Origin: Streptomyces jeddahensis
Lineage (GTDB): Bacteria > Actinomycetota > Actinomycetes > Streptomycetales > Streptomycetaceae
Direction: 5' to 3'
Assembly (NCBI RefSeq): GCF_001642995.1
Contig: NZ_LOHS01000092.1
Location: forward strand, 1-64,000
DNA: 64,000 nt
Positions 25,713-37,099 of the stretch are shown here, one piece after another (position 1 is the first letter of the stretch; each line of letters starts with the position of its first letter). A program made the translations under genes and the position numbers. Under the pieces are notes generated by a model. It worked only from the letters and a program-made list of their open reading frames with translations, ran no database searches and was not told where the DNA came from.

Positions 25713-26150
25713 TCAGTGCTGCGCGAGGAAGCCGCCGCGGAAGACGGGGCGCTTCTCGCCAGCCTCGACGGGCAGGTGGAAGCGGTTCTGCCGCGGCGGC
25801 ATCGGACAGTTGTACTGATCGGAGAATCCGCAGGGCGGTACGAAGGCACGGTTGAAGTCGAGGAGGACGCGGCCCTCGCCGGCGGTGCGCTCCACGAAGA
25901 GGAAGCGCCCGGCGCCGTAGGTGCTGTCACCGTTGGTGGGGTCGCCGAAGACGAGCAGCAGGGTGCCGTCGTCGTCGAAGGCGCTCAGCGTGTAGTCGCG
26001 GCCGTCCACGGCGAGAGAGATGTCACCGGGCACGACGAGGACGCGGGTGCCGCCGCTGTCCCGGATGTGCTCGAACGCGACGCGCCGGGCACCCGGCACC
26101 GGGGTGTAGGCGGCCTCCAGGACCCACGCCGGGTCGTACGGGAAGGCGTC
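25713..26150 (-). pseudogene. 5'-truncated DUF1684 gene
   Basis: The C-terminal part of a DUF1684 protein: PYDPAWVLEAAYTPVPGARRV, then TLLLVFGDPTNGDSTYG and the family end block AFVPPCGFSDQYNCPMPPRQ, NRFHLPVEAGEKRP. Family members are usually about twice this length. The N-terminal half is missing; at about 26150-26163 the sequence changes to a tnpB fragment on the other strand. A nearby ATG could still allow translation, but the domain is incomplete. A short direct repeat (TCAGCGCTGCG / TCAGTGCTGCG) covers the stop codon. Confidence 0.7.
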
Positions 26151-26163
26151 GATGCAGCACGCA

Positions 26164-26316
26164 CTGCGTGAGCGCACCTACACCTGCACCGCCTGCGGAA
26201 CCGTGTCCCCACGGGACAAGAACTCCGCACACGTGATGCTCGTCCGGGCTGGTCTCAACCCGGCTGGTGCTGACGGCGGAAGACCTCCCGGAGCGCTGCT
26301 CCAGGAGGCAGCCTGA
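26164..26316 (+). pseudogene. 3' fragment of IS200/IS605-family tnpB
   Basis: Fifty codons ending in TGA translate to the C-terminus of a TnpB/OrfB protein. The fragment reads LRERTYTCTACGTVSPRDKN, with the second zinc-finger Cys pair, then SAHVMLVRAGLNPAGADGG containing the RuvC-III-like region, and ends GALLQEAA. The rest of the RNA-guided nuclease gene is absent. It abuts the truncated DUF1684 gene on its left and the IS right end on its right. Confidence 0.85.
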
Positions 26317-26360
26317 GCCAGGAATCCCCTCCCTTCAGGGAGCGGAGGTTTCAATCATTC
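26317..26360 (+). mobile_element. Right-end remnant of an IS200/IS605-type element
   Basis: Directly after the tnpB stop comes GGAATCCCCTCCCTTCAGGG then AGCGGAGGTTTCAATCATTC. The hairpin CTCCC-TTCA-GGGAG (26329-26342) and the terminal TCAA are typical of the imperfect-palindromic right end of IS605-group elements and of the 3' region of the associated guide (omega) RNA. No left end is visible. Confidence 0.75.
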
Positions 26361-26488
26361 ACGTAGGCGTTCGTCGGCAGTCACGCCACGACTGTCACGC
26401 TGCGTGAAATTGATGCCCAAAGCACCTTCTTTATCTCCGCAAAGCCAAGCTAATGTCAAATCGAGCCCCCGGGTGTGCCCCGCGCGCG

Positions 26489-27874
26489 TCACGACGCCAC
26501 CCGCTCACCCGGCGCGCCGGCGTCGGGGTGTGCGACGCCGAGGTGGTCGCGCAGCGTGGTGCCCTCGTACTCGGTGCGGAACACGCCGCGCTCCTGCAGC
26601 AGCGGCACGACGGTGTCGGCGAAGATGTCGAGACCGCCCGGCGTGATGTGCGGGACGAGGATGAAGCCGTCGCTGGCGTCGGCTTGCACGAAGTCGTCGA
26701 TCGTCTTGGCGACGGTGGCCGGGGAGCCGACGAAGGCCTGGCGGTTGCCGGTCTCGATGACCAGGTCGCGGATCGACCACTTGTTGGCGGCCGCGAGCTC
26801 CCGCCATTCGCGGGCGATGGCCAGCGGGTCGCGGTACATCCGCACCTGGGCGCGGCCGCGGGCGATGGTGTGCTCGCCGGGGTCGGGGTCGATGTCGGGA
26901 AGCGGGCCGTCCGGGTCGTACGCGGACAGGTCGCGGTTCCAGACGAACTCCAGGTGCTTGATCGCGGTGGCGCCGCTGACCTGCTGCCGGCGTACCTCGT
27001 GGGCCAGCTCCTGCGCCTCGGCGTCGGTGTCGCCGAGGACGAAGGTGGCGGCGGGCAGGATCAGCAGCTGGTCGTGCGTGCGGCCGTACTCCGCGAGGCG
27101 GCCCTTGACGTCCGCGTAGAACGCCTGGCCTTCCTTGAGGGTGCTGTACCTGCTGAAGATCGCGTCCGCGCTGGACGCGGCGAATTCCCGGCCCTCGTCC
27201 GAATCGCCCGCCTGGAAGATCACCGGGCGGCCCTGCGGACTGCGCGGGACGTTGAACTGCCCCTCGATGTCGAAGTGGTAGCCCTGGTGCACGAAGGCTC
27301 CGGCCTTCGCGTCCCGGAGGAAGGTGCCGGTCGCCTGGTCGGCGATGATCTCGTCCCCGTGCCAGGAGTCGAAGAGTTCGTTCGCCGTGCTGAGGAACTC
27401 CTTGGCCCTCGAGTACCGCTCCTCCTGCGGGAGGAAGCCGCCACGGCGGAAGTTCTCGCCGGTGAAGGCGTCCCACGAGGTGACGACGTTCCAGGCGGCG
27501 CGCCCGCCGGAGAGGTGGTCGAGGCTGGCGAACTGGCGGGCCACCTCGTAAGGCTCGTTGAAGGTGGAGTTGATGGTGCCGGTCAGGCCGAGACGTTCCG
27601 TGACGGCGGCCAGGGCGGACAGGACGGTGAAGGTGTCGGGGCGTCCCACGACGTCCAAGTCGTAGATATTTCCGCCCTGTTCGCGCAGCCGGAGTCCCTC
27701 GGCGAGGAACAGGAAGTCGAACTTGGCGCGTTCGGCGGTCCGCGCGAAGTGCGCGAAGGAGCTGAACTCGATGTGGCTGCCGGCCTCGGGGTCGCTCCAC
27801 ACGGTGGTGTTGTTGACGCCGGGGAAGTGGGCGGCCAGATGGATCTGCTTCAGCGGCTTGCTCGGCTTGCTCAT
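26489..27874 (-). CDS. NtaA/SnaA/DmoA-type FMN-dependent monooxygenase
   Basis: 461 residues from the ATG at 27874 (MSKPSKPLKQ). The full-length NtaA/SnaA/DszA/DmoA flavin monooxygenase pattern is visible: IHLAAHFPGVNNTTVWSDPE, RAKFDFLFLAEGLRLREQGG, LGLTGTINSTFNEPYEVARQFASLDHLSGGRAAWNVVTSW, GRPVIFQAGDSDEGREFAA and DGFILVPHITPGGLDIFADTV. Family members use reduced FMN and oxygen to oxidise organosulfur, sulfone or amine substrates. It lies 20 bp downstream of a second monooxygenase in a unit with a Cys-rich leader peptide, which points to a sulfur source. The substrate is not known. Confidence 0.9.
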   Translation of the reverse strand: MSKPSKPLKQIHLAAHFPGVNNTTVWSDPEAGSHIEFSSFAHFARTAERAKFDFLFLAEGLRLREQGGNIYDLDVVGRPDTFTVLSALAAVTERLGLTGTINSTFNEPYEVARQFASLDHLSGGRAAWNVVTSWDAFTGENFRRGGFLPQEERYSRAKEFLSTANELFDSWHGDEIIADQATGTFLRDAKAGAFVHQGYHFDIEGQFNVPRSPQGRPVIFQAGDSDEGREFAASSADAIFSRYSTLKEGQAFYADVKGRLAEYGRTHDQLLILPAATFVLGDTDAEAQELAHEVRRQQVSGATAIKHLEFVWNRDLSAYDPDGPLPDIDPDPGEHTIARGRAQVRMYRDPLAIAREWRELAAANKWSIRDLVIETGNRQAFVGSPATVAKTIDDFVQADASDGFILVPHITPGGLDIFADTVVPLLQERGVFRTEYEGTTLRDHLGVAHPDAGAPGERVAS

Positions 27875-27894
27875 GGTCGTACGGTCCCTCCGGC

Positions 27895-29139
27895 TCAGGC
27901 GGTGGCAGCGGCTGCATAGCGGTTGGCAGGGCGGGCGAGTCCGAGGAGCCCGCGGAGGGTGTCGGCCTCGTACGCGGTCCGGAAGGCGCCGCGGCGCTGG
28001 AGTTCGGGGACCAGGCCCCGGGTGATCTTCGGGAGGTCGTGGCCGACGACGGCCGGGCGCAGCCGGAAGCCGGTCAGTCCAGCGGCCGCCAATTCCTGTA
28101 TCAGATCGGCGAGTTCCCCCGGCGTTCCGGTGAAGATCCGGGCATCGCTGGTGTACGGCTGGCCCGCGAGCTCGTCGAGGCGAGCACGGCGGGCGGCCGC
28201 CTCGGCCGGGTCGTCGTCCAGGAAGACCACGAGGTCCCCGAAGACGTGCACCGGCTCGTCGGCTCGCCCCGCCGCCTGCTGTTCGCCGCGGATCTCGTCG
28301 ACGATGGCGCGGGCCTGCGCGGTGTTGTGTGGGGTGACGTACCCGATGTCGGCTGAGCGCCCGATCAACCGATACGGGACGGTCTCGTGCCCCAGCGCGC
28401 TGACAATGGGCTGTCCCTGAGGCGGGCGAGGGGTGATGGAGGGTCCCTTGACGCTGAAGTGCCGCCCCTCGAAGTCGATGTAGTGCAGCTTGTCCCGGTC
28501 GATGAAGCGGCCGGTGGCGACGTCGCGGATCTCGGCGTCGTCCTCCCAGCTGTCCCACAGCCGACGGACCACCTCGACGTAGTCGGCGGCCTCGTCGAAG
28601 AGTTCGGCGACCAACTCCCGTATGCCGGGCATGTCCAGATCCTCGATGCCGAATCGCGGAAACGTACGGCGGCCGAAGTGGGCCGCCTCGTTCTGCCGCC
28701 CCGACACCTGGATACGCAGCCCCGCGCGACCGGTGCTGACGTAGTCGAGTGTGGCGATGGCCTTGGAGATGTGGAACGGCTCGGTGTGGGTGGCCACCAC
28801 AGTCGGTACGAGTCCTATGTGCCGCGTGAGCGGAGCGACACGGGCGGCGATGAGTACCGCGTCGAGCCGACCACGCACCTGGTCGGTACGACCGTCCGGC
28901 TCCGCGAAGTGTGAGGACTGGAGCCCGAGGCCGTCCTCGAACGTCACGAAGTCGAGCAGGCCGCGCTCGGCCTCGATGACCAGGTCGGCCCAGTATCCGG
29001 CGGTGAACAGGTCCAGCGGCCGGGCCTCCGGCTCGCGCCAGGCAGCCGGGTGCCAGCCTGCGCCGTCGAGCGCGACGGCGAGGTGGAGAGAAGTGGAGGA
29101 CAGGGGTGAAGCAGGCAGCGAAGAAGACGATGAGGACAC
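27895..29139 (-). CDS. LLM-class FMN-dependent monooxygenase
   Basis: 414 residues from the GTG at 29139; AGGAAGG lies a proper distance upstream. After a Ser-rich start come LHLAVALDGAGWHPAAWREP, LLDFVTFEDGLGLQ, RHIGLVPTVVATHTEPFHISKAIATLDYVSTGRAGLRIQ and IVSALGHETVPYRLIGRSADIGYV, a two-component alkanesulfonate/nitrilotriacetate monooxygenase-like luciferase fold. It is the first structural gene behind leader peptide 1 and a hairpin at 29172-29199. Paired monooxygenases with a GNAT gene and amino-acid transporters recall the Bacillus yxe and ytm operons for cysteine derivatives. Confidence 0.9.
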   Translation of the reverse strand: MSSSSSSLPASPLSSTSLHLAVALDGAGWHPAAWREPEARPLDLFTAGYWADLVIEAERGLLDFVTFEDGLGLQSSHFAEPDGRTDQVRGRLDAVLIAARVAPLTRHIGLVPTVVATHTEPFHISKAIATLDYVSTGRAGLRIQVSGRQNEAAHFGRRTFPRFGIEDLDMPGIRELVAELFDEAADYVEVVRRLWDSWEDDAEIRDVATGRFIDRDKLHYIDFEGRHFSVKGPSITPRPPQGQPIVSALGHETVPYRLIGRSADIGYVTPHNTAQARAIVDEIRGEQQAAGRADEPVHVFGDLVVFLDDDPAEAAARRARLDELAGQPYTSDARIFTGTPGELADLIQELAAAGLTGFRLRPAVVGHDLPKITRGLVPELQRRGAFRTAYEADTLRGLLGLARPANRYAAAATA

Positions 29140-29171
29140 GGGAAGTGCCTTCCTGATCGATCGTACGAGAG

Positions 29172-29199
29172 AGCCGAACCTCACGCGCCGGGTTCGGCT
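29172..29199 (-). promoter_or_regulatory. Attenuator-like hairpin after leader peptide 1
   Basis: A perfect 9-bp stem AGCCGAACC (29172-29180) / GGTTCGGCT (29191-29199) with a 10-nt loop. It lies 14 nt after the leader stop and 33 nt before the monooxygenase start, correctly placed for translation-coupled attenuation. Confidence 0.6.
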
Positions 29200-29212
29200 T
29201 CGAGGCAACAGG

Positions 29213-29302
29213 TCAGGAGCAACAGAGCGCGCCGGCCACACGCTGCAGGTCGATGTGGGGCCGGGAGTACAGACGAAGGCGGTGGCGCGGGGCGAGTTTC
29301 AT
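29213..29302 (-). CDS. Cys-containing leader peptide 1 (29 aa)
   Basis: A 29-residue ORF, MKLAPRHRLRLYSR then PHIDLQRVAGALCCS. The H(I/V)DLxRVxxALC core with a terminal Cys pair is the pattern of the putative leader peptides seen upstream of sulfur-metabolism operons in Streptomyces. It occupies the gap between the GNAT gene and the paired monooxygenases. Ribosome stalling at the tandem Cys codons when charged Cys-tRNA is scarce would alter folding of the hairpin at 29172-29199. Function is inferred; the peptide and its location are read directly. Confidence 0.75.
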   Translation of the reverse strand: MKLAPRHRLRLYSRPHIDLQRVAGALCCS

Positions 29303-29393
29303 GACGCGGCGGCAGGAAGCGAGTCGCACGTGCGTCACCTCCGCCCTTCGGGATCGGTGGGGCATCGCGCCCCGCCTGCAGAGAACAGCACGA

Positions 29394-30131
29394 CTACGCC
29401 GTTTGTTCCGGGTGGGCGCCCGGAGTCCGCAGGAACAGGAAGTGGGGGCGTCGGCGCAGGGTGAAGCCGATCGACTCGTAGAGGCGGATCGCGTTGGTGT
29501 TGCTTGCGGCCGCGTGCAGGAAGGGCGTGTCGCCGCGTTCCCTGATGCCCGCCGCGACCGCACGCACAAGGCGGGTCGCGAGCCCCCGGCCGCGGTGGTC
29601 GGGGTGGGTGCACACCGCGCTGATCTCCGTCCAGCCGGGCGGGCGGAGCCGTTCGCCCGCCATGGCGATGAGCCGCCCATGGTGGCGGATGCCGAGGTAG
29701 GTGCCGAGTTCGACGGTGCGGGGCAGGAAGGGGCCCGGCTTGGTCAGGGCGATCAGCCCCAGGATCTCGGGCACGTCGTCGAGGCCGAGCCGCACCGCTG
29801 CCGCCGTCGGTTCGGCGTGCAGTGCCGTGTCGACGAGTTGCACGCCCTGACCGCTCTCCACGACCTCCCACCCGTCCGGAGGGCCCTGTACTCCGGTGAC
29901 CGCCACAGAGGTGCCCGGTCCGACGAGGGCGGCCAGGTCGTCCCAGGCGCCCGGGTCGTCCGGGTCGGCCAGGGCGGTGAACGGGGATACGTCCGCGGGG
30001 TAGCGGGCGGCGCGGCCGACGCGCTCGGCGAACAAGGCGTGGGGGCCGGTCAGTGCGGCCCAGGCGGGGTTGTCCAGGATGTGCGGTGCCGCGGGGCTCT
30101 GCGCCTCGGCCGGGTGGACGCTGGTGGACAT
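29394..30131 (-). CDS. GNAT-family N-acetyltransferase
   Basis: 245 residues. The C-terminal half (about 110-235) is a GNAT/FR47-like fold with EISAVCTHPDHRGRGLATRL as acetyl-CoA-binding motif A and HAAASNTNAIRLYESIGFTLRRRP as motif B. The N-terminal half is a degenerate second GNAT-like region. It should acetylate an amine with acetyl-CoA in the cytosol. In Bacillus the comparable GNAT of the yxe operon acetylates S-(2-succino)cysteine before a monooxygenase opens it, and that role would fit here. A terminator-like hairpin (30174-30221) separates it from the upstream binding protein. Confidence 0.85.
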   Translation of the reverse strand: MSTSVHPAEAQSPAAPHILDNPAWAALTGPHALFAERVGRAARYPADVSPFTALADPDDPGAWDDLAALVGPGTSVAVTGVQGPPDGWEVVESGQGVQLVDTALHAEPTAAAVRLGLDDVPEILGLIALTKPGPFLPRTVELGTYLGIRHHGRLIAMAGERLRPPGWTEISAVCTHPDHRGRGLATRLVRAVAAGIRERGDTPFLHAAASNTNAIRLYESIGFTLRRRPHFLFLRTPGAHPEQTA

Positions 30132-30173
30132 GGCGGTTCGGGTCTCCGTATGCGACGTGTGGGGAGCATCCCC

Positions 30174-30221
30174 ACGGCCCCGCCACCGGCGATGGTCGTC
30201 GTGCCACGGTGGCGGGGCCGT
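30174..30221 (-). terminator. Strong hairpin between binding protein and GNAT genes
   Basis: A perfect 14-bp stem ACGGCCCCGCCACC (30174-30187) / GGTGGCGGGGCCGT (30208-30221), 20-nt loop, 33 bp after the stop of the binding-protein gene on the minus strand. It probably ends the transporter transcript. Confidence 0.7.
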
Positions 30222-30253
30222 TCAACGGGCTGCACGAGTCATGCGATGGGCTG

Positions 30254-31279
30254 TCAGGAGTTGTCGAGGGGCAGTCCGGGCGGGTTGACCTCTGCCTTCT
30301 CGACGGCCTCGTTGGACAGGTTCCAGGCGGCCAGCCACTTCGCGTACTGACCGTTCTTGATCAGGTGGTTGATGGCGTCGGTGACCGGCTTGGCGATCCC
30401 GCTGTCCTTCTTCGTGGTCGCCGCGATCAGGCCCTGGAGCGTGGCGCCGGCGCCGGAGAAGGTGCCCGCGCTGCGCGTCGGGTTGGGTGACTTGGCGGTC
30501 TGCGTGATGTGGTAGGCGACGCCGGGGTTGGCGGCGAAGTAGGCGTCGATCTTCCCGCCCGTCAGCGCCAGGTAGGTGCTGTTCTTGCTGGCGAAGTGCT
30601 TGACGGTGAGCTTCTTGCCCTCCTTCTTCAGCTTCGCCTGCCACTCGAGGAGGATCTTCTCCTGGTTGGTGCCGTTGTCGACGGCGACGGTCTTCCCGGC
30701 GAGGTTTTCGTAGTCGCCGTCGAAGTTCCACGTGCTCGACTTCAGCACCTCGAAGCCGACGTTGTCCTTCCGGTAGGAGGCGAAGTCGTACTTCCGCTTG
30801 CGCTCCTCGGTGTCGGTGATGTTGGAGAAGGCGACGTCGACCTTGCCGCTGTCGATGCCGACGAACATGTTCTCCCACGTGGAGTTCTTCAGCTCCGGCT
30901 GCAGCCCGAGGACCGCGGCGACCAGGCGGCCGAAGTCGGGTTCGGCGCCGGTGAGGGTCTTCTGGTCCGAGCCGACGTAGGCGAGAGGCGGGAAGCCGTC
31001 GGGCAGGGCGCCGACACCGATCACGAGCTTGCCGCTCTTGCGGACGGACTCCGGTAGCTCGGCGCTGATCGACTTGACCTCGGAGACCTTCAACTCGGCC
31101 TGCTGTGCGGCCCGGTTGGACAGCTGACCCACGGTCACGGTGCCCGTGGCGGCGGCATCGGTGGTGGTGGCGGCATCGCTGTCTCCCCCGCAGGCGGTGA
31201 GACCGGTGGCGAGGGTGGCCACGGCGGTCGCCGCGGTGATGCCGCGCAGCAGGCTGCGTCGAGAGAAGTGGGTAGGCAT
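30254..31279 (-). CDS. Polar amino-acid ABC transporter substrate-binding lipoprotein (set 1)
   Basis: 341 residues. SRRSLLRGITAATAV carries a twin-arginine motif, and the signal ends in lipobox LTAC with Cys30 lipidated. The mature domain is a family 3 solute-binding fold: GKLVIGVGALPDGFPPLAYVG, LTGAEPDFGRLVAAVLGLQPE, VDVAFSNITDTEERKRKYDFASY and the hinge KTVAVDNGTNQEKIL. It binds a polar amino acid or derivative outside the cell and works with the permease and ATPase immediately upstream. Sulfur-compound specificity is inferred from the cluster. It resembles the set 2 binding protein at 34340-35308. Confidence 0.88.
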   Translation of the reverse strand: MPTHFSRRSLLRGITAATAVATLATGLTACGGDSDAATTTDAAATGTVTVGQLSNRAAQQAELKVSEVKSISAELPESVRKSGKLVIGVGALPDGFPPLAYVGSDQKTLTGAEPDFGRLVAAVLGLQPELKNSTWENMFVGIDSGKVDVAFSNITDTEERKRKYDFASYRKDNVGFEVLKSSTWNFDGDYENLAGKTVAVDNGTNQEKILLEWQAKLKKEGKKLTVKHFASKNSTYLALTGGKIDAYFAANPGVAYHITQTAKSPNPTRSAGTFSGAGATLQGLIAATTKKDSGIAKPVTDAINHLIKNGQYAKWLAAWNLSNEAVEKAEVNPPGLPLDNS

Positions 31280-31357
31280 GGCTGTCCTTGTCGCTGAGTA
31301 AAGGCGGTGGAAGGGGTACGGAGGTTGTTGCGGGGAGTACGGGGATACGGAGGCGGG

Positions 31358-32152
31358 TCAGAGCACCTTGCTGAGGAAGTCCCTGGTCCGCTCGTGCCGC
31401 GGGTTGTCCAGCGCCTCGGCGGGCGGGCCCTGTTCGACGATGCGGCCGCCGTCGATGAAGACGACCCGGTCGGCGACCTCGCGGGCGAAGCCGATCTCGT
31501 GGGTGACGATGACGAGGGTGGTGCCGCTGGTCGCCAGGTCCTTGATGACCTCCAGGACCTCGCCGACGAGTTCGGGGTCGAGCGCCGACGTGGGCTCGTC
31601 GAACAGGATGATTCCCGGGCGCAGGGCGAGTGCGCGGGCGATGGCCACCCTCTGCTGCTGCCCGCCGGACAGCTGCCGCGGGTAGGCATCGGTCTTGTCG
31701 CCGAGGCCCACGCGGCCCAGCAGTTCGCGCGCCAGCTCCTGAGCCTCGGGCCTGGTGAGCTTCCTGGTGGCCACGGGTGCGGCAGCGACGTTGTCCATGA
31801 CGGTCAGATGCGGGAAGAGGTTGAAATTATGGAAAACGAAGCCGATCCGGCTGCGCTGGGCGAGGATGGCCCGTTCGCTGAGCTCCTTCAGCCGCTCGCC
31901 GTGCCGCCGTACGCCGATCAGCTCGCCGTTGACGCTGACGTAGCCGATCTCGGGCTTCTCCAGGTGGTTGATGACCCGCAGCAGGGTGGACTTGCCGGAG
32001 CCGGACGGGCCGAGGATCACGGTGACCTCGCCGGGCTGCACGGTCAGGTCGATGCCGTCCAGCACCCGGTGGGCGCCGTACCACTTGTGCACGTCGTGCA
32101 CCTCGACGGCGGCGGGGCGTATCGCCGGCGTCTCGAGCGTCTCGGCGGTCAT
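31358..32152 (-). CDS. Polar amino-acid ABC transporter ATP-binding protein (set 1)
   Basis: 264 residues from the ATG at 32152 (ATGA overlap with the permease stop). Walker [10 protein letters not shown] (residues 48-56), Q-loop [14 protein letters not shown], signature [12 protein letters not shown], Walker [15 protein letters not shown] and H-loop VTHEIGFA are all intact. It belongs to the GlnQ/TcyC-type ATPases of polar amino-acid uptake. It is closely related to the set 2 ATPase at 33576-34340, so the two sets may be old duplicates. Confidence 0.9.
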   Translation of the reverse strand: MTAETLETPAIRPAAVEVHDVHKWYGAHRVLDGIDLTVQPGEVTVILGPSGSGKSTLLRVINHLEKPEIGYVSVNGELIGVRRHGERLKELSERAILAQRSRIGFVFHNFNLFPHLTVMDNVAAAPVATRKLTRPEAQELARELLGRVGLGDKTDAYPRQLSGGQQQRVAIARALALRPGIILFDEPTSALDPELVGEVLEVIKDLATSGTTLVIVTHEIGFAREVADRVVFIDGGRIVEQGPPAEALDNPRHERTRDFLSKVL

Positions 32153-33213
32153 ACGGCGGCCTCCTTGCGCGCACGCTCCCGCAGGCCGGTGCGCAGCTTC
32201 TGCAACGGAGTCGGCGGCAGGGTGCGCGTGGCGCCCCGGGCGAAGTGCCGCTCGACGTAGAACTGGACGACGGACACGGCGCTGGTGAGGATCAGGTACC
32301 ACACGGTGGCGACAAGGAGCAGCGGCACGATGTCGCCGGGATAGGTGCTGCCCATCGTCTGCACCGAGCCGAACAGGTCGAGCAGCGACACGTAGAAGAC
32401 CAGGGACGTGCCCTTGATGAGGCCGATCAGCTGGTTGACGTAGTTGGGGGTGATGGAGCGCAGGGCCTGCGGGAAGACGATCCGGGCGAACTGGTAGCGC
32501 TTCGGCAGCCCCAGCGCGGCTGCCGCCTCGTGCTGTCCCTGGTCGACCGAGAGGATGCCGGCCCGCACCACCTCTGCGGCGTAGGCGGCCTCGTTGAGGC
32601 TCAGTCCGACGACCGCCACGACGATGTCGGTGGCCAGCCGCGACTCGTCGAAGGTGAAGAAGGCCGGCCCGAACGGCACGCCGATGCTCAACGTCTTGTA
32701 CAGCGCACTGAAGTTGTAGAGGAAGATCAGTACGACGATCAGCGGTATCGAGCGGAACAGCCAGGTGTACACCCAGCTGACGGCCCGTAGCACCGGACTG
32801 CCGGAGAGCCTGCCGAGCGCGATCAGGATGCCGCCGAGCAGCCCCAGCACGGCGCTGTACGCCGTCACTTCAAGGGTGATGACCAGGCCGTCGAGGATCA
32901 CCGGGCGCAGGAACCAGTACTGGAAACGGTCCCACTGGTAGAAGGGGTTGGTCAGCAGCCCGTGGCCGATCTGGGCGACCAGTACCAGCACGACCGCCGT
33001 GGCGATCCACCGGCCGGGGCGCCTGAGGGGAAGCACCCGCTGCGCCGACAGCAGCCGCGTCTGGGCGTCGCCGCCGGACCCTTCGGTCTCTTCAGCGGGG
33101 CCCTGAGACCGCGGTGCGGTGTGCAGCACGGCGGAGGAGGGTTCAGGGCGGGGTATCGCCTCGGCGGGGGGTGCTGAGCCGGAGGACACAGCAGAGCCGG
33201 GACGTTCACTCAT
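32149..33213 (-). CDS. Polar amino-acid ABC transporter permease (set 1)
   Basis: 354 residues. A roughly 75-residue cytoplasmic N-terminal extension of low complexity precedes a HisM/GlnP-type permease with about five membrane segments (WIATAVVLVLVAQIGHGLLT, GLVITLEVTAYSAVLGLLGG). The ATPase-docking loop reads GQHEAAAALGLPKRYQFARIVFPQALRSITPNYVNQLIGLIKGTSL. It forms the channel for the set 1 transporter. It is the first structural gene after leader peptide 2, which is separated from it by a 190-nt untranslated stretch with competing stem segments. Confidence 0.9.
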   Translation of the reverse strand: MSERPGSAVSSGSAPPAEAIPRPEPSSAVLHTAPRSQGPAEETEGSGGDAQTRLLSAQRVLPLRRPGRWIATAVVLVLVAQIGHGLLTNPFYQWDRFQYWFLRPVILDGLVITLEVTAYSAVLGLLGGILIALGRLSGSPVLRAVSWVYTWLFRSIPLIVVLIFLYNFSALYKTLSIGVPFGPAFFTFDESRLATDIVVAVVGLSLNEAAYAAEVVRAGILSVDQGQHEAAAALGLPKRYQFARIVFPQALRSITPNYVNQLIGLIKGTSLVFYVSLLDLFGSVQTMGSTYPGDIVPLLLVATVWYLILTSAVSVVQFYVERHFARGATRTLPPTPLQKLRTGLRERARKEAAV

Positions 33214-33373
33214 GGAGGACTCCAGCAGATTCGGACACCCGGACCCGCAGGCGACTACGGCGCGGCAGAGCGGGAGGATCTCTGCGCGACGAAGCGCACT
33301 GGAGCGGGCGGAACCGGGGGTGGTTCGGGGGAGAGAACGCCGCGACGGCGGCGAACGTCAGTGATGCAGCAAG

Positions 33374-33406
33374 CCGTCAGCGGTGACGGGATTCAAAAAG
33401 CCGTCA
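33374..33406 (-). promoter_or_regulatory. Mutually exclusive RNA stems after leader peptide 2
   Basis: On the minus-strand transcript, segment 1 (TGACGG, 33401-33406, overlapping the leader stop codon) and segment 3 (TGACGG, 33374-33379) can each pair with segment 2 (CCGTCA, 33384-33389), but not together. The 1:2 and 2:3 pairings are alternatives, so a ribosome at the stop codon would mask segment 1 and favour 2:3. The segments are short (6 nt), so the switch is a hypothesis. Confidence 0.5.
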
Positions 33407-33520
33407 GCCCTGACAGAGAACGCGACAGGGGACGCAACACAGTGCACTGTTGACGCGGAGCAGATCGACGGGACGGTTGGCATACGTCGACACGCGACCG
33501 TGGCGCCGCCAAGCGGCCAT
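33404..33520 (-). CDS. Cys-rich leader peptide 2 (38 aa)
   Basis: A 38-residue ORF, MAAWRRHGRVSTYAN then RPVDLLRVNSALCCVPC and RVLCQG. The PVDLLRVxSALCC core matches the other two leaders in the cluster, and four Cys codons fall in the last 11. An in-frame ATG at 33550 would add ten residues. It sits only 55 bp after the set 2 ATPase stop, inside the minus-strand block, so it may attenuate read-through between the two transporter sets rather than mark a new promoter. Confidence 0.75.
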   Translation of the reverse strand: MAAWRRHGRVSTYANRPVDLLRVNSALCCVPCRVLCQG

Positions 33521-33575
33521 CCCCGGAGCTGCGTACGTCGCCGTCACCATCAGCTCGACCCAGCGGCGAGAGCGC

Positions 33576-34340
33576 TCACAGGACCTTGGAGAGGAAGGCC
33601 CGGGTGCGCTCTTGCCGCGGATCGTCCAGGACGGCCGCGGGCGGTCCCTGCTCCACGACCACTCCCCCGTCCATGAACACCACGGTGTCGGCGACCTCGC
33701 GGGCGAACCCGATCTCATGGGTCACCACGATCATGGTGGTCCCGGTGAGGGCCAAGTCCTTGATGACATCCAGTACTTCGCCGACCAGCTCCGGGTCGAG
33801 CGCGGAGGTGGGCTCGTCGAACAGCAGCACCTTCGGTTCGAGGGCGAGGGCGCGGGCGATGGCCACCCGCTGCTGCTGCCCGCCGGACAGCTGGCGCGGG
33901 TAGACATCGGCCTTGTCGGCGAGACCGACCCGCTCCAGCAACCTCCCGGCCGCCGCCACCGCGTCCTTGCGTGGGCGTCGCAGCGCCGACACCGGGGCCT
34001 CGACGAGGTTCTCGAGCACGGTGAGGTGCGGGAAGAGGTTGAAGTTCTGGAAGACGAACCCGATATGGGTACGTTGCTTCAGAACCTCCTTCTCCTTCAG
34101 TTCGTGCAGCTTGCCGCCGGACCGGCGGTAGCCGATCAGCTCCCCGTCGATGCTGATCCAGCCGCGGTTCAGCTTCTCCAGGTGGTTGATGGTGCGCAGC
34201 AGCGTGGACTTCCCCGAGCCGGACGGGCCGAGGATCACGGTGACCTCGCCCGCCCGGACCTGCAGGTCGACGCCGCGCAGCACCTCGAGCGGCCCGAAGC
34301 TCTTGTGGACGCCGTGCACGTCCACCATGACGTCGCTCAT
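33576..34340 (-). CDS. Polar amino-acid ABC transporter ATP-binding protein (set 2)
   Basis: 254 residues from the ATG at 34340, in a TGATG junction with the binding-protein stop; the open frame continues upstream as a shadow. Walker [10 protein letters not shown] (38-46), Q-loop [14 protein letters not shown], signature [12 protein letters not shown], Walker [15 protein letters not shown] and H-loop VTHEIGFA are present. A GlnQ/TcyC-like ATPase, closely similar to the set 1 copy. It may serve the divergent permease at 36005-37099. Confidence 0.9.
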
Positions 34341-35308
34341 CACCTCTCCTCGGGCGGGTTGATCCGCGATTCCTCGATCGCGGAGGCCGACGTGCCCCAC
34401 TTCTTGAGGATCCTGTCGTACGTGCCGTCCTTGATCAGCTGGTTGACCGCGGCCTGGAAGGCGGGGGTGAGCTTGGAGCCCTTCTTGAAGGCGAAGCCGA
34501 CGTCGAGCCGGTGGAACTCGCCGAGGAAGGTGGTCCCGGCGGCGGGCTGAGCGGCCTGGTAGCGCAGGCCGTTGATGGTGGACATGATCACGTCGATCCG
34601 GCCCTGCTGGAGCGCGGTGAGGGTCGCAGCGTTCTCCGAGAAGACCTTCACGTCGTACGGCTTCTTGCCCGCCTTGGCGCAGACGCCCTTCTGCGCCTCG
34701 AGCGTCGCCTCGAACGTGGTGCCGGCGCCGGTGCCGATGGTCAGCCCGCACAGTTGCGTGAGTCCGGTGACCTTCGTTCCCAGCTTCGTGTCGCCCTTCT
34801 TCACGGCGAAGCCCTGGCCGTCGTTGATGTAGGTGACGAAGTCGATGGTCTTCAGGCGTTCGGCGGTGACGCCGAAGTTGCCGGTCCCGAAGTCGTACTT
34901 GCCGCTGCCGAGGGCCGGCAGGATCGTCTCGAAGGAGGCGTCCTGGCGCTCCAGTCTGACGCCGAGGACCTTGGCCACGGCGTTCGCGATGTCGATGTCC
35001 TGGCCTGCGGGGGGCTTGCCCGTCCCGTCCGGGTAGTACGCCGCGGGCGGGGTTCCGGTCGAGCTGCCGACGCGCAGGGTGCCCGCCTTGCGTACGTCGG
35101 CGGGCAGCAGGGCGGCGATGGAGTCCACCTTCTGGACGGAGGCGACCGGGTTGTCGCTGGGCGCGGGTGAGGCCTTGGCACCAGCCGCCGACGCGGCTGC
35201 AGTGTCGTCGGCCGTTCCCGAGCCGCACGCGGTCAGTGCCAGCAGGGGCAGCAGCGCGACGGAGGCGGCGAGCAGGCGCAGAGGGGTTCTGATCCCTGGG
35301 AGGTTCAC
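34340..35308 (-). CDS. Polar amino-acid ABC transporter substrate-binding lipoprotein (set 2)
   Basis: 322 residues. The signal peptide ends in lipobox LTAC (Cys28), followed by an Ala/Ser-rich spacer. Family 3 solute-binding domain: [77 protein letters not shown] and [26 protein letters not shown]. It captures an amino acid or related anion outside the membrane. It is the first structural gene behind leader peptide 3, with which it shares a 241-bp untranslated region carrying a strong hairpin. Confidence 0.88.
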
Positions 35309-35437
35309 GGAGCCGGGAGCCTTTCAGGTGCGTATGTGCGTATGCCTGTGGCGGAGTGGGTCCAGCAGTGATGACGCCTGGGGCATGGGCCTCGGGCGGA
35401 GGTGGTGAGGCGGCAGCGTGCGCCCGGCTGCGCAGAA

Positions 35438-35473
35438 CCGCCGGTACGACGTGTCAGCGCACGTGTACGGCGG
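35438..35473 (-). promoter_or_regulatory. Attenuator-like hairpin after leader peptide 3
   Basis: A long interrupted stem: CCGCC (35438-35442), GTAC (35444-35447) and CGTG (35450-35453) pair with CACG (35460-35463), GTAC (35465-35468) and GGCGG (35469-35473) around a 6-nt loop. It lies about 77 nt after the leader stop and 130 nt before the binding-protein start on the minus strand. Confidence 0.55.
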
Positions 35474-35549
35474 CGGTGCGAGGGCAGAACTCGGCCCGCG
35501 ACGGGTTCACCGAGGGAGGGAAGGGCCGGTCAGACAGCCCGCTGCCGGG

Positions 35550-35627
35550 TCAGGCGCAACACGCTGCAGACCACACTCGACCGAAGTCGATGTGATCGCG
35601 CGTGACCAGACGCTGATCGGCATTCAT
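35550..35627 (-). CDS. Cys-containing leader peptide 3 (25 aa)
   Basis: A 25-residue ORF, MNADQRLVTR then DHIDFGRVWSAACCA. The HID(F/L)xRVxSAxCC core is shared with leaders 1 and 2. A possible promoter on the minus strand (TTGACG at 35658-35663, 17-bp spacer, CTCAAT at 35635-35640) would start transcription at or within a base or two of the ATG, giving a leaderless mRNA. Likely role: sensing cysteine through tandem Cys codons to control the set 2 binding protein and ATPase. Confidence 0.75.
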   Translation of the reverse strand: MNADQRLVTRDHIDFGRVWSAACCA

Positions 35628-35634
35628 GCGGCCA

Positions 35635-35663
35635 ATTGAGCAGTACATTCGGCGTCCCGTCAA
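35635..35663 (-). promoter_or_regulatory. Possible promoter for leader peptide 3
   Basis: Minus-strand TTGACG (35658-35663), 17-bp spacer, CTCAAT (35635-35640). The -35 is good and the -10 is weak. The predicted start coincides with the leader ATG at 35627. Confidence 0.35.
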
Positions 35664-35721
35664 CCAGTGCCCGGATGCCGGACGGGAGTTGACCGGTTCC
35701 CGGGCCCTCTTCCCGGGCTCT

Positions 35722-35771
35722 GTTGACACATCCATGGCGGTTGACAGATCCATGCTGGCGGCACATACGAT
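35722..35771 (+). promoter_or_regulatory. Direct repeats and possible promoter for the plus-strand permease
   Basis: GTTGACACATCCATGGCG (35722-35739) and GTTGACAGATCCATGCTGGCG (35740-35760) are tandem near-copies, each with a TTGACA -35 box. TACGAT at 35766-35771 could be the -10 for the second (19-bp spacer). The tandem spacing also suits a regulator. The rest of the 377-bp gap up to 36004 shows no convincing gene or Cys-rich leader on the plus strand. Confidence 0.4.
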
Positions 35772-36004
35772 CGAGGGCGGACCGGCTCCGCCTCGCGCGG
35801 GGCCCCTCCGGCCGCGTTGAGGGACGCGGCGAACGTGATGACGCCGGCACCCGGTCGCACACCGTACGCGGGCAGTGTCGCCTGCACCGTATCCGCGCAG
35901 TGTCCGCCTGCTCCGATGCCTGCTCGTATCCGCGCGATGTCTGCGTACGTGTGCCACCGCATGGTCACCCACGCCCCGCCACTCCCTCTCCCGGAGAACC
36001 TCCG

Positions 36005-37099
36005 ATGGTCTCGCCTTCCGAAGTCACCACTGCTCAGGCCGAATCCATCCCGGCCGCAATCCCGGCCGCAACAGGCATTGCCGCCAAAGGCATGGGCACC
36101 AAGGGCCCGGCTGCCGAAGACCCCGCCACGCATGACCTGACGGCCGTCACCCCCGGCCGCGACGACCTGCCGCGGATCGTGCCGCGCCGCCGCGTCGGCC
36201 GCTGGCTCGCGGCCGCCGCGGCTCTGCTGGTCTTCGCGATGGTAGTCAACTCCGTCGTGCGCAACCCCGCGTTCCAATGGGGCGTGGTGGGCCGGTACTT
36301 CACCACGAGTGCCGTGCTCGATGGGCTACTGCTGACGCTGTGGCTGACCGGCGCGGTGATGGTGCTCGGCTTTCTGCTCGGCACGCCGCTGGCGGTGATG
36401 CGACTCTCCGGCAACCCGGTGCTGCGCACGCTCAGTTGGGGCTATGTGTGGATCTTCCGCTCCACCCCGCTCCTTGTGCAGCTGCTGTTCTGGTTCAACA
36501 TCGGCGCGCTCTACCCGACGCTCGGCTTCGGCATCCCCTTCGGCCCGGAGTTCGTCACCGTCAAGACGGTGAACCTGCTCGGTCCCACGCTCACCGCCGT
36601 GATCGGACTCACCCTGCACGAGGCGGCGTACGCGGCCGAGGTGGTGCGCGGCGGCATCCTCTCCGTGGACTCCGGCCAGACGGAGGCCGCCCAGGCTCTC
36701 GGTCTCAGCAGGGCGCGCACACTGCGCCGGATCGTGATCCCGCAGGCGATGCGGTCGATCGTGCCGACCGCCGGCAACATGCTGATCGGCACGCTCAAGG
36801 GCACCAGCATCGTCAGCGTGCTGGCCGTGCACGACCTGCTGTACTCGGTGCAGCTGGTCTACAACCAGACGTACCAGGTCATCCCGCTGCTCATGGTCGC
36901 CACCCTCTGGTACATCGCCGTGACGACGGTGCTGAGCGCGGGGCAGTTCTACGTCGAGCGGTACTACGCGCGCGGCAATGCCCGGGAGCTGCCGCCCACC
37001 CCGCTGCAACGGCTGCGCGGGCAGCTGGCCGCCGTACGCATCCGGCTGCGCGCGGCGACCGCCGCCGACGCCCGGCCCGCGACCGGCGGTGACCGGTGA
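36005..37099 (+). CDS. Polar amino-acid ABC transporter permease (set 2)
   Basis: 364 residues from the ATG at 36005 (MVSPSEVTTAQ). A roughly 70-residue hydrophilic N-terminal extension precedes a HisM/GlnP-type permease: RWLAAAAALLVFAMVVNSVV, GLLLTLWLTGAVMVLGFLLG, FRSTPLLVQLLFWFNIGALY and the ATPase-docking loop GQTEAAQALGLSRARTLRRIVIPQAMRSIV. It completes the set 2 transporter, whose binding protein and ATPase are encoded divergently. GTGA overlap with the following FAD protein gene links transport directly to catabolism. Confidence 0.9.
   Translation: MVSPSEVTTAQAESIPAAIPAATGIAAKGMGTKGPAAEDPATHDLTAVTPGRDDLPRIVPRRRVGRWLAAAAALLVFAMVVNSVVRNPAFQWGVVGRYFTTSAVLDGLLLTLWLTGAVMVLGFLLGTPLAVMRLSGNPVLRTLSWGYVWIFRSTPLLVQLLFWFNIGALYPTLGFGIPFGPEFVTVKTVNLLGPTLTAVIGLTLHEAAYAAEVVRGGILSVDSGQTEAAQALGLSRARTLRRIVIPQAMRSIVPTAGNMLIGTLKGTSIVSVLAVHDLLYSVQLVYNQTYQVIPLLMVATLWYIAVTTVLSAGQFYVERYYARGNARELPPTPLQRLRGQLAAVRIRLRAATAADARPATGGDR

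What the first reader, a model, noticed from the sequence alone, without database searches (positions are those of the whole stretch)
29172..29302. Unannotated cysteine leader peptide 1 with attenuator ahead of two flavin monooxygenases
A 29-codon ORF (PHIDLQRVAGALCCS end) lies in the gap before the monooxygenase pair. A perfect 9-bp hairpin (29172-29199) follows its stop and precedes the structural start. The tandem Cys codons at the end and the HIDLxRV core recur in two more leaders of this cluster. Seen directly: peptide, hairpin, spacing. Known: Cys-rich leader ORFs act as cysteine attenuators in mycobacteria, and similar putative leaders precede sulfur operons in Streptomyces. Inferred: ribosome stalling on Cys codons switches the hairpin.
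Basis: partly seen in the sequence, partly recalled or inferred. Interest (0 to 1): 0.8.

Follow-up and report, generated by a model that had tools for sequence, protein, structure and literature searches.

The report
Cysteine leader peptide masking ribosome site
A short upstream reading frame in a soil bacterium probably switches on two sulfur-scavenging enzymes when cysteine runs short; the peptide belongs to an already named family, but the RNA switch proposed here and a nearly invariant choice of one cysteine codon look new and are untested.

Summary
It matches NCBIfam NF042934 'putative leader peptide' (41.5 bits, cut-off 27), and a RefSeq relative is annotated so before the same gene. 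In 150 genomes of the genus, 45 of 49 close orthologs have an intact leader. The likelier switch is translational: the leader's last codons (UGU...UCCUGA) pair with the next gene's ribosome-binding site (UCAGGAAGGCA); a ribosome stalled on Cys lowers the modelled cost of opening it in 49 of 53 relatives (window 9.4 to 4.0 kcal/mol). Unexpected: the conserved Cys codon is UGU in 105 of 109 leaders from 16 genomes of the genus and in 65 of 65 analysed from other genera, while other Cys codons in these leaders are mostly UGC. All is computed from sequence; no experiment backs it.

The parts
29213..29329 (-). leader ORF, 38 codons from GTG 29329 (or 29 from ATG 29302), ...SRPHIDLQRVAGALCCS*
   Evidence: NF042934 41.5 bits over cut-off 27
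29338..29342 (-). GGAGG, likely ribosome-binding site of the leader, 8 nt before GTG 29329
   Evidence: read directly; not tested
29222..29224 (-). UGU, the single conserved cysteine codon (proposed sensor codon)
   Evidence: UGU in 54 of 55 leaders before this gene, 105 of 109 family leaders with Cys at this place in 16 genomes of the genus, 65 of 65 from other genera
29213..29218 (-). UCCUGA (Ser codon and stop), proposed anti-SD
   Evidence: complementary to 29156-29151; CCUG:CAGG pairs kept in 39, 40, 40 and 40 of 40 aligned relatives
29172..29199 (-). 9-bp hairpin between leader and SD: apical stem or spacer of the proposed structure, no sign of a terminator
   Evidence: absent in L134, L138, L366
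29148..29154 (-). AGGAAGG, Shine-Dalgarno site of the first monooxygenase gene; overlaps the conserved GGCA (29149-29146)
27895..29139 (-). first LLM flavin monooxygenase gene (GTG 29139), NtaA/DmoA-like
   Evidence: PF00296 8.3e-28; TIGR03860 263 bits, below its cut-off 279.7
26489..27919 (-). second LLM monooxygenase gene, NtaA/DmoA family; nearest solved relatives by sequence YtnJ/MoxC
   Evidence: TIGR03860 424.7 bits; 1yw1 E 5.4e-87
29394..30131 (-). GNAT acetyltransferase gene upstream of the leader
   Evidence: PF08445, PF00583
33404..33493 (-). leader 3 (VSTYANRPVDLLRVNSALCCVPCRVLCQG*) ahead of permease, ATPase, SBP and GNAT genes
   Evidence: 15.8 bits, below the NF042934 cut-off
35550..35627 (-). 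leader 2 (MNADQRLVTRDHIDFGRVWSAACCA*) ahead of SBP and ATPase genes
   Evidence: best model NF042936 (Ms4527A) 24 bits, below its cut-off 45

Best explanation
A cysteine-responsive translational attenuator. When cysteine is plentiful the ribosome reads the leader quickly and leaves at UGA 29215-29213; the leader's last codons (UGUUGCUCCUGA) then pair with the Shine-Dalgarno region of the monooxygenase gene (UCAGGAAGGCA) across a variable apical hairpin, so translation of the pair stays low. When Cys-tRNA is short the ribosome stops with the UGU codon 29224-29222 in the A site and covers about the next 12 nt, which is the anti-SD; the SD opens and the monooxygenases are made. Shown from sequence: the leader, its conservation, the complementarity, and, in an RNA folding model, sequestration and its partial release. 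Inferred: that the ribosome stalls there, that cysteine is the signal, and that protein output changes.
For: Leader intact in 45 of 49 orthologs of at least 76% identity (a limit I set afterwards) in 150 genomes: 39 through RNA model R1, 6 more on inspection; 1 decayed, 2 without a leader found, 1 at a contig end. In 53 of 55 relatives (two lacked the SD pattern) the SD pairs with the leader tail with mean probability 0.61, against 0.09 (sd 0.03, highest of 20 rounds 0.14) when the stretch between is shuffled; in the lowest-energy fold at least 3 of 8 SD bases pair with the tail in 47 of 55. Masking a ribosome footprint at the Cys codon lowers the cost of opening the SD in 49 of 53, by more than 2 kcal/mol in 32, mean 6.8 to 4.1; window 9.4 to 4.0, or 10.8 to 7.3 with slightly different limits. 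A consensus of 40 of the 55 keeps exactly CCUG:CAGG and UGUY:GGCA. The last codon changes mostly between Ser and Pro while its second and third letters are CC in 48 of 55, which points to selection on the RNA there. A second leader class has its own exact 8-bp tail:SD match, CCGTCCTG:CAGGACGG, in 12 of 15; the one whose gene I tested is cysteine dioxygenase, with pairing probability 1.00 against 0.10 in shuffles. Seven of the ten leaders over the cut-off in the window's genome have an assigned gene behind them, sulfur-related or plausibly so: ThiS/CysO-like, sulfite reductase, rhodanese, cysteine dioxygenase, two LLM, an NMT1-like binding protein; TauD and flavin reductase follow weaker matches. 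54 orthologous first monooxygenase genes, as far as held, contain 2 Cys codons in all, as expected of proteins made when sulfur is short (recalled).
Against: No compensatory change in the anti-SD helix: both sides hardly vary, so covariation cannot support it; double changes occur only in the apical hairpin, 3 pairs, and 23 of 500 shuffles reach that number. The mean SD unpaired probability rises only from 0.21 to 0.35, in the window from 0.28 to 0.30, because the freed SD finds other partners. In 4 of 53 the opening cost does not fall, and in L028 it rises from 5.1 to 8.4. For the window alone 2 of 60 shuffles pair the SD with the tail as well. Related sequences are not independent trials. 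The consensus of 40 left out 15 of the 55, mainly long or atypical spacers; in 8 of 55 the tail:SD pairing is not in the lowest-energy fold or could not be scored. Of 11 leaders tested in the window's genome only this one and L004 pair directly with the SD, so the device is not general for the family. Cysteine dioxygenase breaks cysteine down, which makes induction on starvation odd for the second class. L026 and L119 keep the gene with a damaged leader.
Confidence: 0.62

Rival explanations
1. Arrest-peptide version: the stall is made by the nascent HxDLxRxxxxxC chain in the exit tunnel together with the UGU codon, so the leader senses cysteine or cysteinyl-tRNA through a peptide-specific pause and not by simple codon hunger. 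The output (SD release) is the same.
For: Asp, Leu and Arg of the core are kept in 114, 111 and 114 of 114 leaders while their codons vary (Arg as CGC, CGT, CGG, AGG, CGA), and the distance from the core to the Cys is fixed (Cys at index 11 in 109 of 114). A plain hungry-codon attenuator does not need this.
Against: The leaders were found with a profile of this core and picked with a pattern that favours these residues, so their constancy is partly by construction; L116 (HIDLLRTAG) and L119 (core lost) were missed by such patterns. No tunnel or stalling data; the core could serve some other purpose. Index 11 is not Cys in 5 of 114.
Confidence: 0.2
2. Classical transcription attenuation: the 9-bp hairpin is a terminator, and a ribosome stalled on Cys lets an antiterminator form.
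For: The hairpin is real and more stable than base shuffles in most relatives (mean z -1.63, below -1 in 38 of 51, above 0 in 6), and has some paired changes. High-GC terminators can lack a U-run (recalled).
Against: No terminator-like call for it; the only such site found, 29402-29390, lies at the end of the GNAT gene. Hairpin absent in L134, L138, L366. The most conserved stretches are the leader end and the SD, not the hairpin. I did not search systematically for an antiterminator.
Confidence: 0.08
3. Rho-dependent or polarity control: a quickly vacated leader exposes RNA to Rho, and stalled ribosomes protect it; the SD pairing is a by-product.
For: Proposed for mycobacterial cys leaders without terminators (PMC1262725, passages).
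Against: The stop-to-start spacer is only 45-48 nt in some relatives (L366, L134, L138), and the SD-centred conservation is unexplained. Not tested directly.
Confidence: 0.06
4. The leader is a decaying remnant or acts only as an upstream translated ORF without cysteine sensing.
For: Three of the 20 closest loci in genome contigs lack it and one is decayed; L119 is decayed too.
Against: High conservation over many species; two of the three leaderless loci (L035, L039) carry a leader further upstream, which fits a moved control point; none was found for L037.
Confidence: 0.04

Closest known systems
NCBIfam NF042934 cis_reg_atten, 'putative leader peptide'
   Same: Leader 1 matches all 19 positions above cut-off; RefSeq NZ_CP108387.1 carries this annotation before the orthologous LLM gene, and NZ_CP030074.1 has it under the match
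   Different: The model is of the peptide; what the tools show of it says nothing about the UGU codon or the SD pairing
Mycobacterial Cys-rich leader uORFs (Canestrari et al. 2020; NCBIfam Ms5788A NF042933, Ms4527A NF042936)
   Same: Cys codons in a uORF before operon genes; described by others as cysteine-responsive translational attenuation (PMC9031893 and PMC13236596, passages). The original paper is not held
   Different: Those are leaderless and poly-Cys by the paper's title; leader 1 has a likely SD and a single conserved Cys, and scores 16 bits against the Ms5788A cut-off 45
Cys leaders without terminators before cys operons in Mycobacterium and P. acnes (PMC1262725)
   Same: Leader peptide with Cys codons, no clear terminator (passages)
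   Different: The passages seen name no Streptomyces cysteine case and suggest Rho, not SD sequestration, for cys
uORFC-8-2 before cysS in Rhodobacterales (PMC8632094)
   Same: Tandem Cys codons in a uORF (passages)
   Different: Intrinsic terminator with U-run; UGC dominates there
Translational attenuators of the ermC/cat type (recalled)
   Same: A stalled ribosome on a leader frees a sequestered SD
   Different: Those answer to antibiotics; here amino-acid supply
B. subtilis ytmI-tcyJKLMN-ytnJ cluster for S-substituted cysteine use (recalled; the paper search listed nothing on ytnJ)
   Same: Acetyltransferase, amino-acid ABC transporter parts and a YtnJ-like monooxygenase together
   Different: Function and orthology not tested here; regulation there is by a protein regulator (recalled)

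Membership tests
NF042934 putative leader peptide | whole-protein score over the curated cut-off (27 bits) | tested here: met
   41.5 bits, E 6.9e-11, positions 1-19 of 19
NF042934 putative leader peptide | short ORF in front of sulfur-related genes (my reading of the family) | tested here: met
   LLM pair here; ThiS/CysO-like, sulfite reductase, cysteine dioxygenase, rhodanese, LLM for paralogs over the cut-off; genes behind L005, L006 and L011 not assigned
Ms5788A family Cys-rich leader (NF042933) | score over cut-off 45 bits | tested here: not met
   16 bits
Cysteine-responsive translational attenuator (Canestrari type) | Cys codons near the end of the leader | tested here: met
   first Cys in 54 of 55, a second in 26 of 55; not poly-Cys
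Cysteine-responsive translational attenuator (Canestrari type) | leader tail sequesters the downstream SD and a stalled ribosome frees it | tested here: inconclusive
   sequestration clear in the folding model; release lowers the opening cost in 49 of 53 but hardly changes the unpaired probability in the window; no covariation; no experiment
Cysteine-responsive translational attenuator (Canestrari type) | leaderless leader ORF | tested here: inconclusive
   GGAGG before GTG 29329 argues against it; no transcription start data
Cysteine-responsive translational attenuator (Canestrari type) | expression of the operon depends on cysteine | not testable with these tools
   no expression data
Transcription attenuator with intrinsic terminator | GC hairpin followed by U-run | tested here: not met
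   hairpin yes, U-run no
Transcription attenuator with intrinsic terminator | hairpin kept in relatives | tested here: not met
   kept in most, but absent in L134, L138, L366
Rfam RNA family | match to any of 4227 models | tested here: not met
   no match up to E 1 in 26000-36400

The most novel reading that the evidence does not exclude
The actinobacterial Cys leaders are one family of cysteine-sensing arrest peptides with a fixed reading head: a conserved nascent chain HxDLxR, a fixed distance, and a sensor codon that must be UGU. The slower wobble-read codon of the single tRNA-Cys sets the threshold of the switch, while the output device differs from operon to operon; at the monooxygenase and cysteine dioxygenase operons it is direct sequestration of the SD by the leader's own last codons.
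Probability: 0.3. Interest if true: 0.78.

Novelty: new member of a known kind. Interest (0 to 1): 0.55.

Why it matters
If right, it gives a worked anatomy for a leader family that NCBI names only 'putative' and that a profile search finds in 154 of 246 sampled genomes of the class, several times in many of them. The UGU rule turns a vague idea (Cys codons cause stalling) into a one-base experiment, UGU to UGC, that leaves the peptide unchanged and so separates codon effects from peptide effects. It also ties a cluster that resembles one for S-substituted cysteine use to cysteine supply.

Tried and rejected
Terminator reading of the hairpin: rejected as the main switch (and hairpin-less relatives). 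Known RNA family: none found. Tandem Cys as the conserved feature: rejected. Stability of the whole leader region as evidence: rejected, z +0.97. Covariation of the anti-SD helix: none to count. The whole-structure counts on 15 sequences exceed shuffles in most measures, but that alignment was folded to the same structure and the helix at issue does not vary, so I give it little weight. Direct SD pairing as a family-wide device: rejected, only 2 of 11 leaders of the genome. UGU as needed for pairing: not supported, since the U pairs with G there and UGC would pair better. Mended on the way: my first scans of the two LLM genes used wrong frames (no hits), corrected; the SD of L004 was placed at the wrong start, corrected. 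Literature: nine searches on leaders showed, in the top rows listed (7 to 20 papers each; none), no paper on Streptomyces cysteine leaders or a UGU rule; one search was on the ytm cluster. The library lacks most subscription papers, so this is weak evidence of absence.

Rows dropped before counts: one search left out L105 (duplicate) and L115 (the window itself), and the pattern missed L108, L116 and L119, read by eye and. and 46 used 53 of 55 (no SD pattern in L041 and L046). Alignment A3 used 40 of 55, A2 15 of the 17. One search left out 2 of 117 places (L107, L137, both TGT) and one duplicate. The 97 background ORFs were picked by GC3 of at least 0.85, which lowers the background share of TGT; seven window genes gave 0 TGT and 15 TGC. 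In one search, 19 further matches at 62-75% identity were not inspected for leaders; none of their genomes has an R1 match except G016, whose better copy was counted, without one.

Full report
What is there. The feature lies on the minus strand between a GNAT acetyltransferase gene (30131-29394) and two luciferase-like monooxygenase genes (29139-27895 and 27919-26489). A short ORF ends at 29213 with HIDLQRVAGALCCS*. The hairpin at 29199-29172 is a perfect 9-bp stem. Seventy-three bases separate leader stop and gene start. That the genome is a Streptomyces is inferred from the best relatives.

It is a member of a named family. The peptide matches NCBIfam NF042934 'putative leader peptide' with 41.5 bits (cut-off 27). 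The window's genome holds 10 leaders over the cut-off. Seven have an assigned gene behind them: this LLM pair, a ThiS/CysO-like, a sulfite reductase, a second LLM, a rhodanese, a cysteine dioxygenase and an NMT1-like binding-protein gene; the genes behind L005, L006 and L011 were not assigned. A TauD and a flavin reductase gene follow weaker matches. In RefSeq record NZ_CP108387.1 a 'putative leader peptide' is annotated directly before the orthologous LLM gene, in the order permease, ATPase, substrate-binding protein, GNAT, leader, four LLM-type genes. NZ_CP109366.1 shows the same order with no leader listed, but that gene table is stated to be incomplete. Leaders 2 (35627-35550) and 3 (33493-33404) of the window are weaker relatives that stay below the cut-offs.

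Conservation. A scan of genome contigs gave 80 relatives of the first monooxygenase (capped at the best 80 of 592). Of the first 20, all Streptomyces, 16 have an intact leader before the gene, L026 has a damaged one, and L035, L037 and L039 have none; in these three the gene directly follows what reads like a substrate-binding-protein gene. L035 and L039 carry a leader further upstream; none was found for L037. Of the next two, L045 lacks it and L046 (Actinacidiphila) has it. Among the 58 more distant relatives the search pattern found leader-like ORFs in 8, mostly of other types and at other distances. Separately, an RNA model built from 15 sequences found one match in each of 41 of 150 genomes of the genus; 40 of the 41 have an intact leader, and L119 has lost the core and the Cys. 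In the same 150 genomes I counted 49 orthologs of at least 76% identity (limit set afterwards): 40 with the RNA match (39 intact leaders, 1 decayed), 6 more with an intact leader on inspection, 2 with none found and 1 at a contig end. The six added leaders and L108 and L116 all have UGU.

What is conserved and what is not. In 55 distinct leaders the first Cys codon is TGT in 54 and CGT in L026; the next codon is Cys in 26 (14 TGT, 12 TGC) and Arg in 27. The intervening hairpin varies in length and sequence; only 9 bases are left for it in L134 and L138, and L366 has a 45-nt spacer without it. By contrast CCUGAC at the leader end and CAGGAAGGC before the start hardly change.

The proposed switch. 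In the window, UCCUGA (29218-29213) is the exact complement of UCAGGA (29156-29151), which overlaps the SD AGGAAGG (29154-29148). In lowest-energy folds at least 3 of 8 SD bases pair with the leader tail in 47 of 55 relatives. In 53 of them the mean probability of this pairing is 0.61, against 0.09 when the stretch between is shuffled; for the window alone 2 of 60 shuffles do as well. Masking the footprint of a ribosome with the Cys codon in its A site lowers the cost of opening the SD in 49 of 53, by more than 2 kcal/mol in 32; in the window from 9.4 to 4.0, or from 10.8 to 7.3 with slightly different limits. Against this, the mean unpaired probability of the SD rises only from 0.21 to 0.35, and from 0.28 to 0.30 in the window. 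The helix itself shows no compensatory changes; the few paired changes lie in the apical stem. I take this as good evidence of sequestration and only modest evidence of efficient release.

A second case. Leaders of the class HMDLxRYAGCVCRPSC precede a cysteine dioxygenase gene in the window's genome (CDO_I, 2.1e-52; the genes of the other 14 were not tested). In 12 of 15 such leaders the codons CCG-UCC-UG are the exact 8-bp complement of CAGGACGG further on; of the other three, two have different 7-bp matches and one a 5-bp match. In L004 this covers the SD, with pairing probability 1.00 against 0.10 in shuffles (0 of 60 as high) and an opening cost of 13.1 that falls to 7.2 with the ribosome on the Cys codon (the value for L004 used a wrong start). 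The other nine leaders tested in the window's genome do not pair with their SD beyond shuffles. So direct SD masking is one output device of the family, not the only one. That an enzyme that breaks cysteine down has it too is unexplained.

The UGU rule. Counting from the H of HxDLxR as 0, the Cys is at index 11. In 16 genomes of the genus the family search gave 117 places; 114 distinct leaders were analysed. Index 11 is Cys in 109, and its codon is TGT in 105 and TGC in 4; other Cys codons in the same leaders are 27 TGT and 96 TGC. The background in 97 ORFs of related loci is 30 TGT and 175 TGC, a set picked for high GC3, so the comparison within the leaders is the fairer one. The share of A or T in the third position is 0.94 at index 11 and 0.01-0.30 at indices 0-10 and 12. 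Of 41 distinct core strings, 37 are TGT throughout and 4 never. From other genera, 65 distinct leaders out of 66 loci (one duplicate) are TGT in 65 of 65, with other Cys codons at 28 TGT and 89 TGC. These 66 come from high-scoring rows, not from a random draw. Related leaders are not independent, so the Fisher values are not probabilities; the spread over core strings and genera is the stronger point. In the Rhodobacterales cysS leader UGC dominates (PMC8632094, passages), so the rule is not general to Cys attenuators. Pairing does not explain it: in the consensus the U faces a G, and C would pair better. A slower wobble-read codon is my preferred explanation; it is inference, and that bacteria have a single tRNA-Cys with anticodon GCA is recalled.

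The peptide core. Asp, Leu and Arg are kept in 114, 111 and 114 of 114 leaders while their codons vary. The profile and my pattern both favour these residues, so the constancy is partly by construction; the codon variety is not. It suggests selection on the peptide ahead of the Cys, at the distance of the upper exit tunnel (recalled). This is more than a plain hungry-codon attenuator needs and is the ground for the arrest-peptide reading.

The genes served. The second monooxygenase is an NtaA/DmoA-family enzyme closest by sequence among solved structures to YtnJ/MoxC; the first is a divergent relative. The substrate-binding proteins match family 3 binding proteins, with cystine-transporter models among the better ones though far below cut-off. 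With the GNAT enzyme this resembles the B. subtilis cluster for S-substituted cysteine use (recalled, untested). In 54 orthologs of the first monooxygenase gene, as far as held, there are 2 Cys codons in all.

What is known. Cys-codon leaders without clear terminators were described for mycobacterial cys operons (PMC1262725, passages), and cysteine-responsive attenuation in M. smegmatis by Canestrari et al. 2020, which I could not read and know from citing passages. Speculation on mycobacterial Cys-rich uORFs is in PMC4633059 (passages). A Streptomyces lividans reannotation lists eight leader peptides, none named for cysteine (PMC8079986, passages). In nine searches on leaders the listed rows held no paper on Streptomyces cysteine leaders or on the UGU codon.

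Verdict. I file it as a new member of a known kind, with an SD-masking anatomy and a codon rule that deserve an experiment.

Noticed in passing
L004:1501-1660 and 14 related loci: Leader class HMDLxRYAGCVCRPSC, in L004 before a cysteine dioxygenase gene; 12 of 15 have an exact 8-bp match CCGTCCTG:CAGGACGG between leader codons and a downstream stretch that in L004 is the SD. Why an enzyme that breaks down cysteine should be induced on starvation is unexplained.
   Followed up: partly
window 29222-29224 and index 11 of the family leaders: The conserved Cys codon is almost always UGU in genomes where UGC is the usual codon.
   Followed up: partly
window 27895-29139 and 54 orthologs: The first monooxygenase is almost free of cysteine: 2 Cys codons in 54 genes.
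   Followed up: no
L011, L219, L227, L232, L245: A leader subclass RRHIDLLRV(C/S)SA without Cys at index 11; four of the five have a Cys at index 7 instead.
   Followed up: no
L005 and L007 (G000:C71:150422-150816): Two family leaders lie divergently about 290 bases apart; behind the L007 one is an LLM monooxygenase gene.
   Followed up: no
window about 26110-26320, plus strand: An open stretch ends ...LRERTYTCTACGTVSPRDKNSAHVMLVRAGLNPAG..., which looks like the zinc-ribbon end of a TnpB-type transposon protein (recalled, not searched); probably a remnant.
   Followed up: no
Streptomyces lividans metL leader, Table 4 of PMC8079986 (passage): The leader named for methionine before metNIQ reads ...GARCMCRRMCAF with three Cys near its end, so it might be a cysteine leader; not examined.
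   Followed up: no
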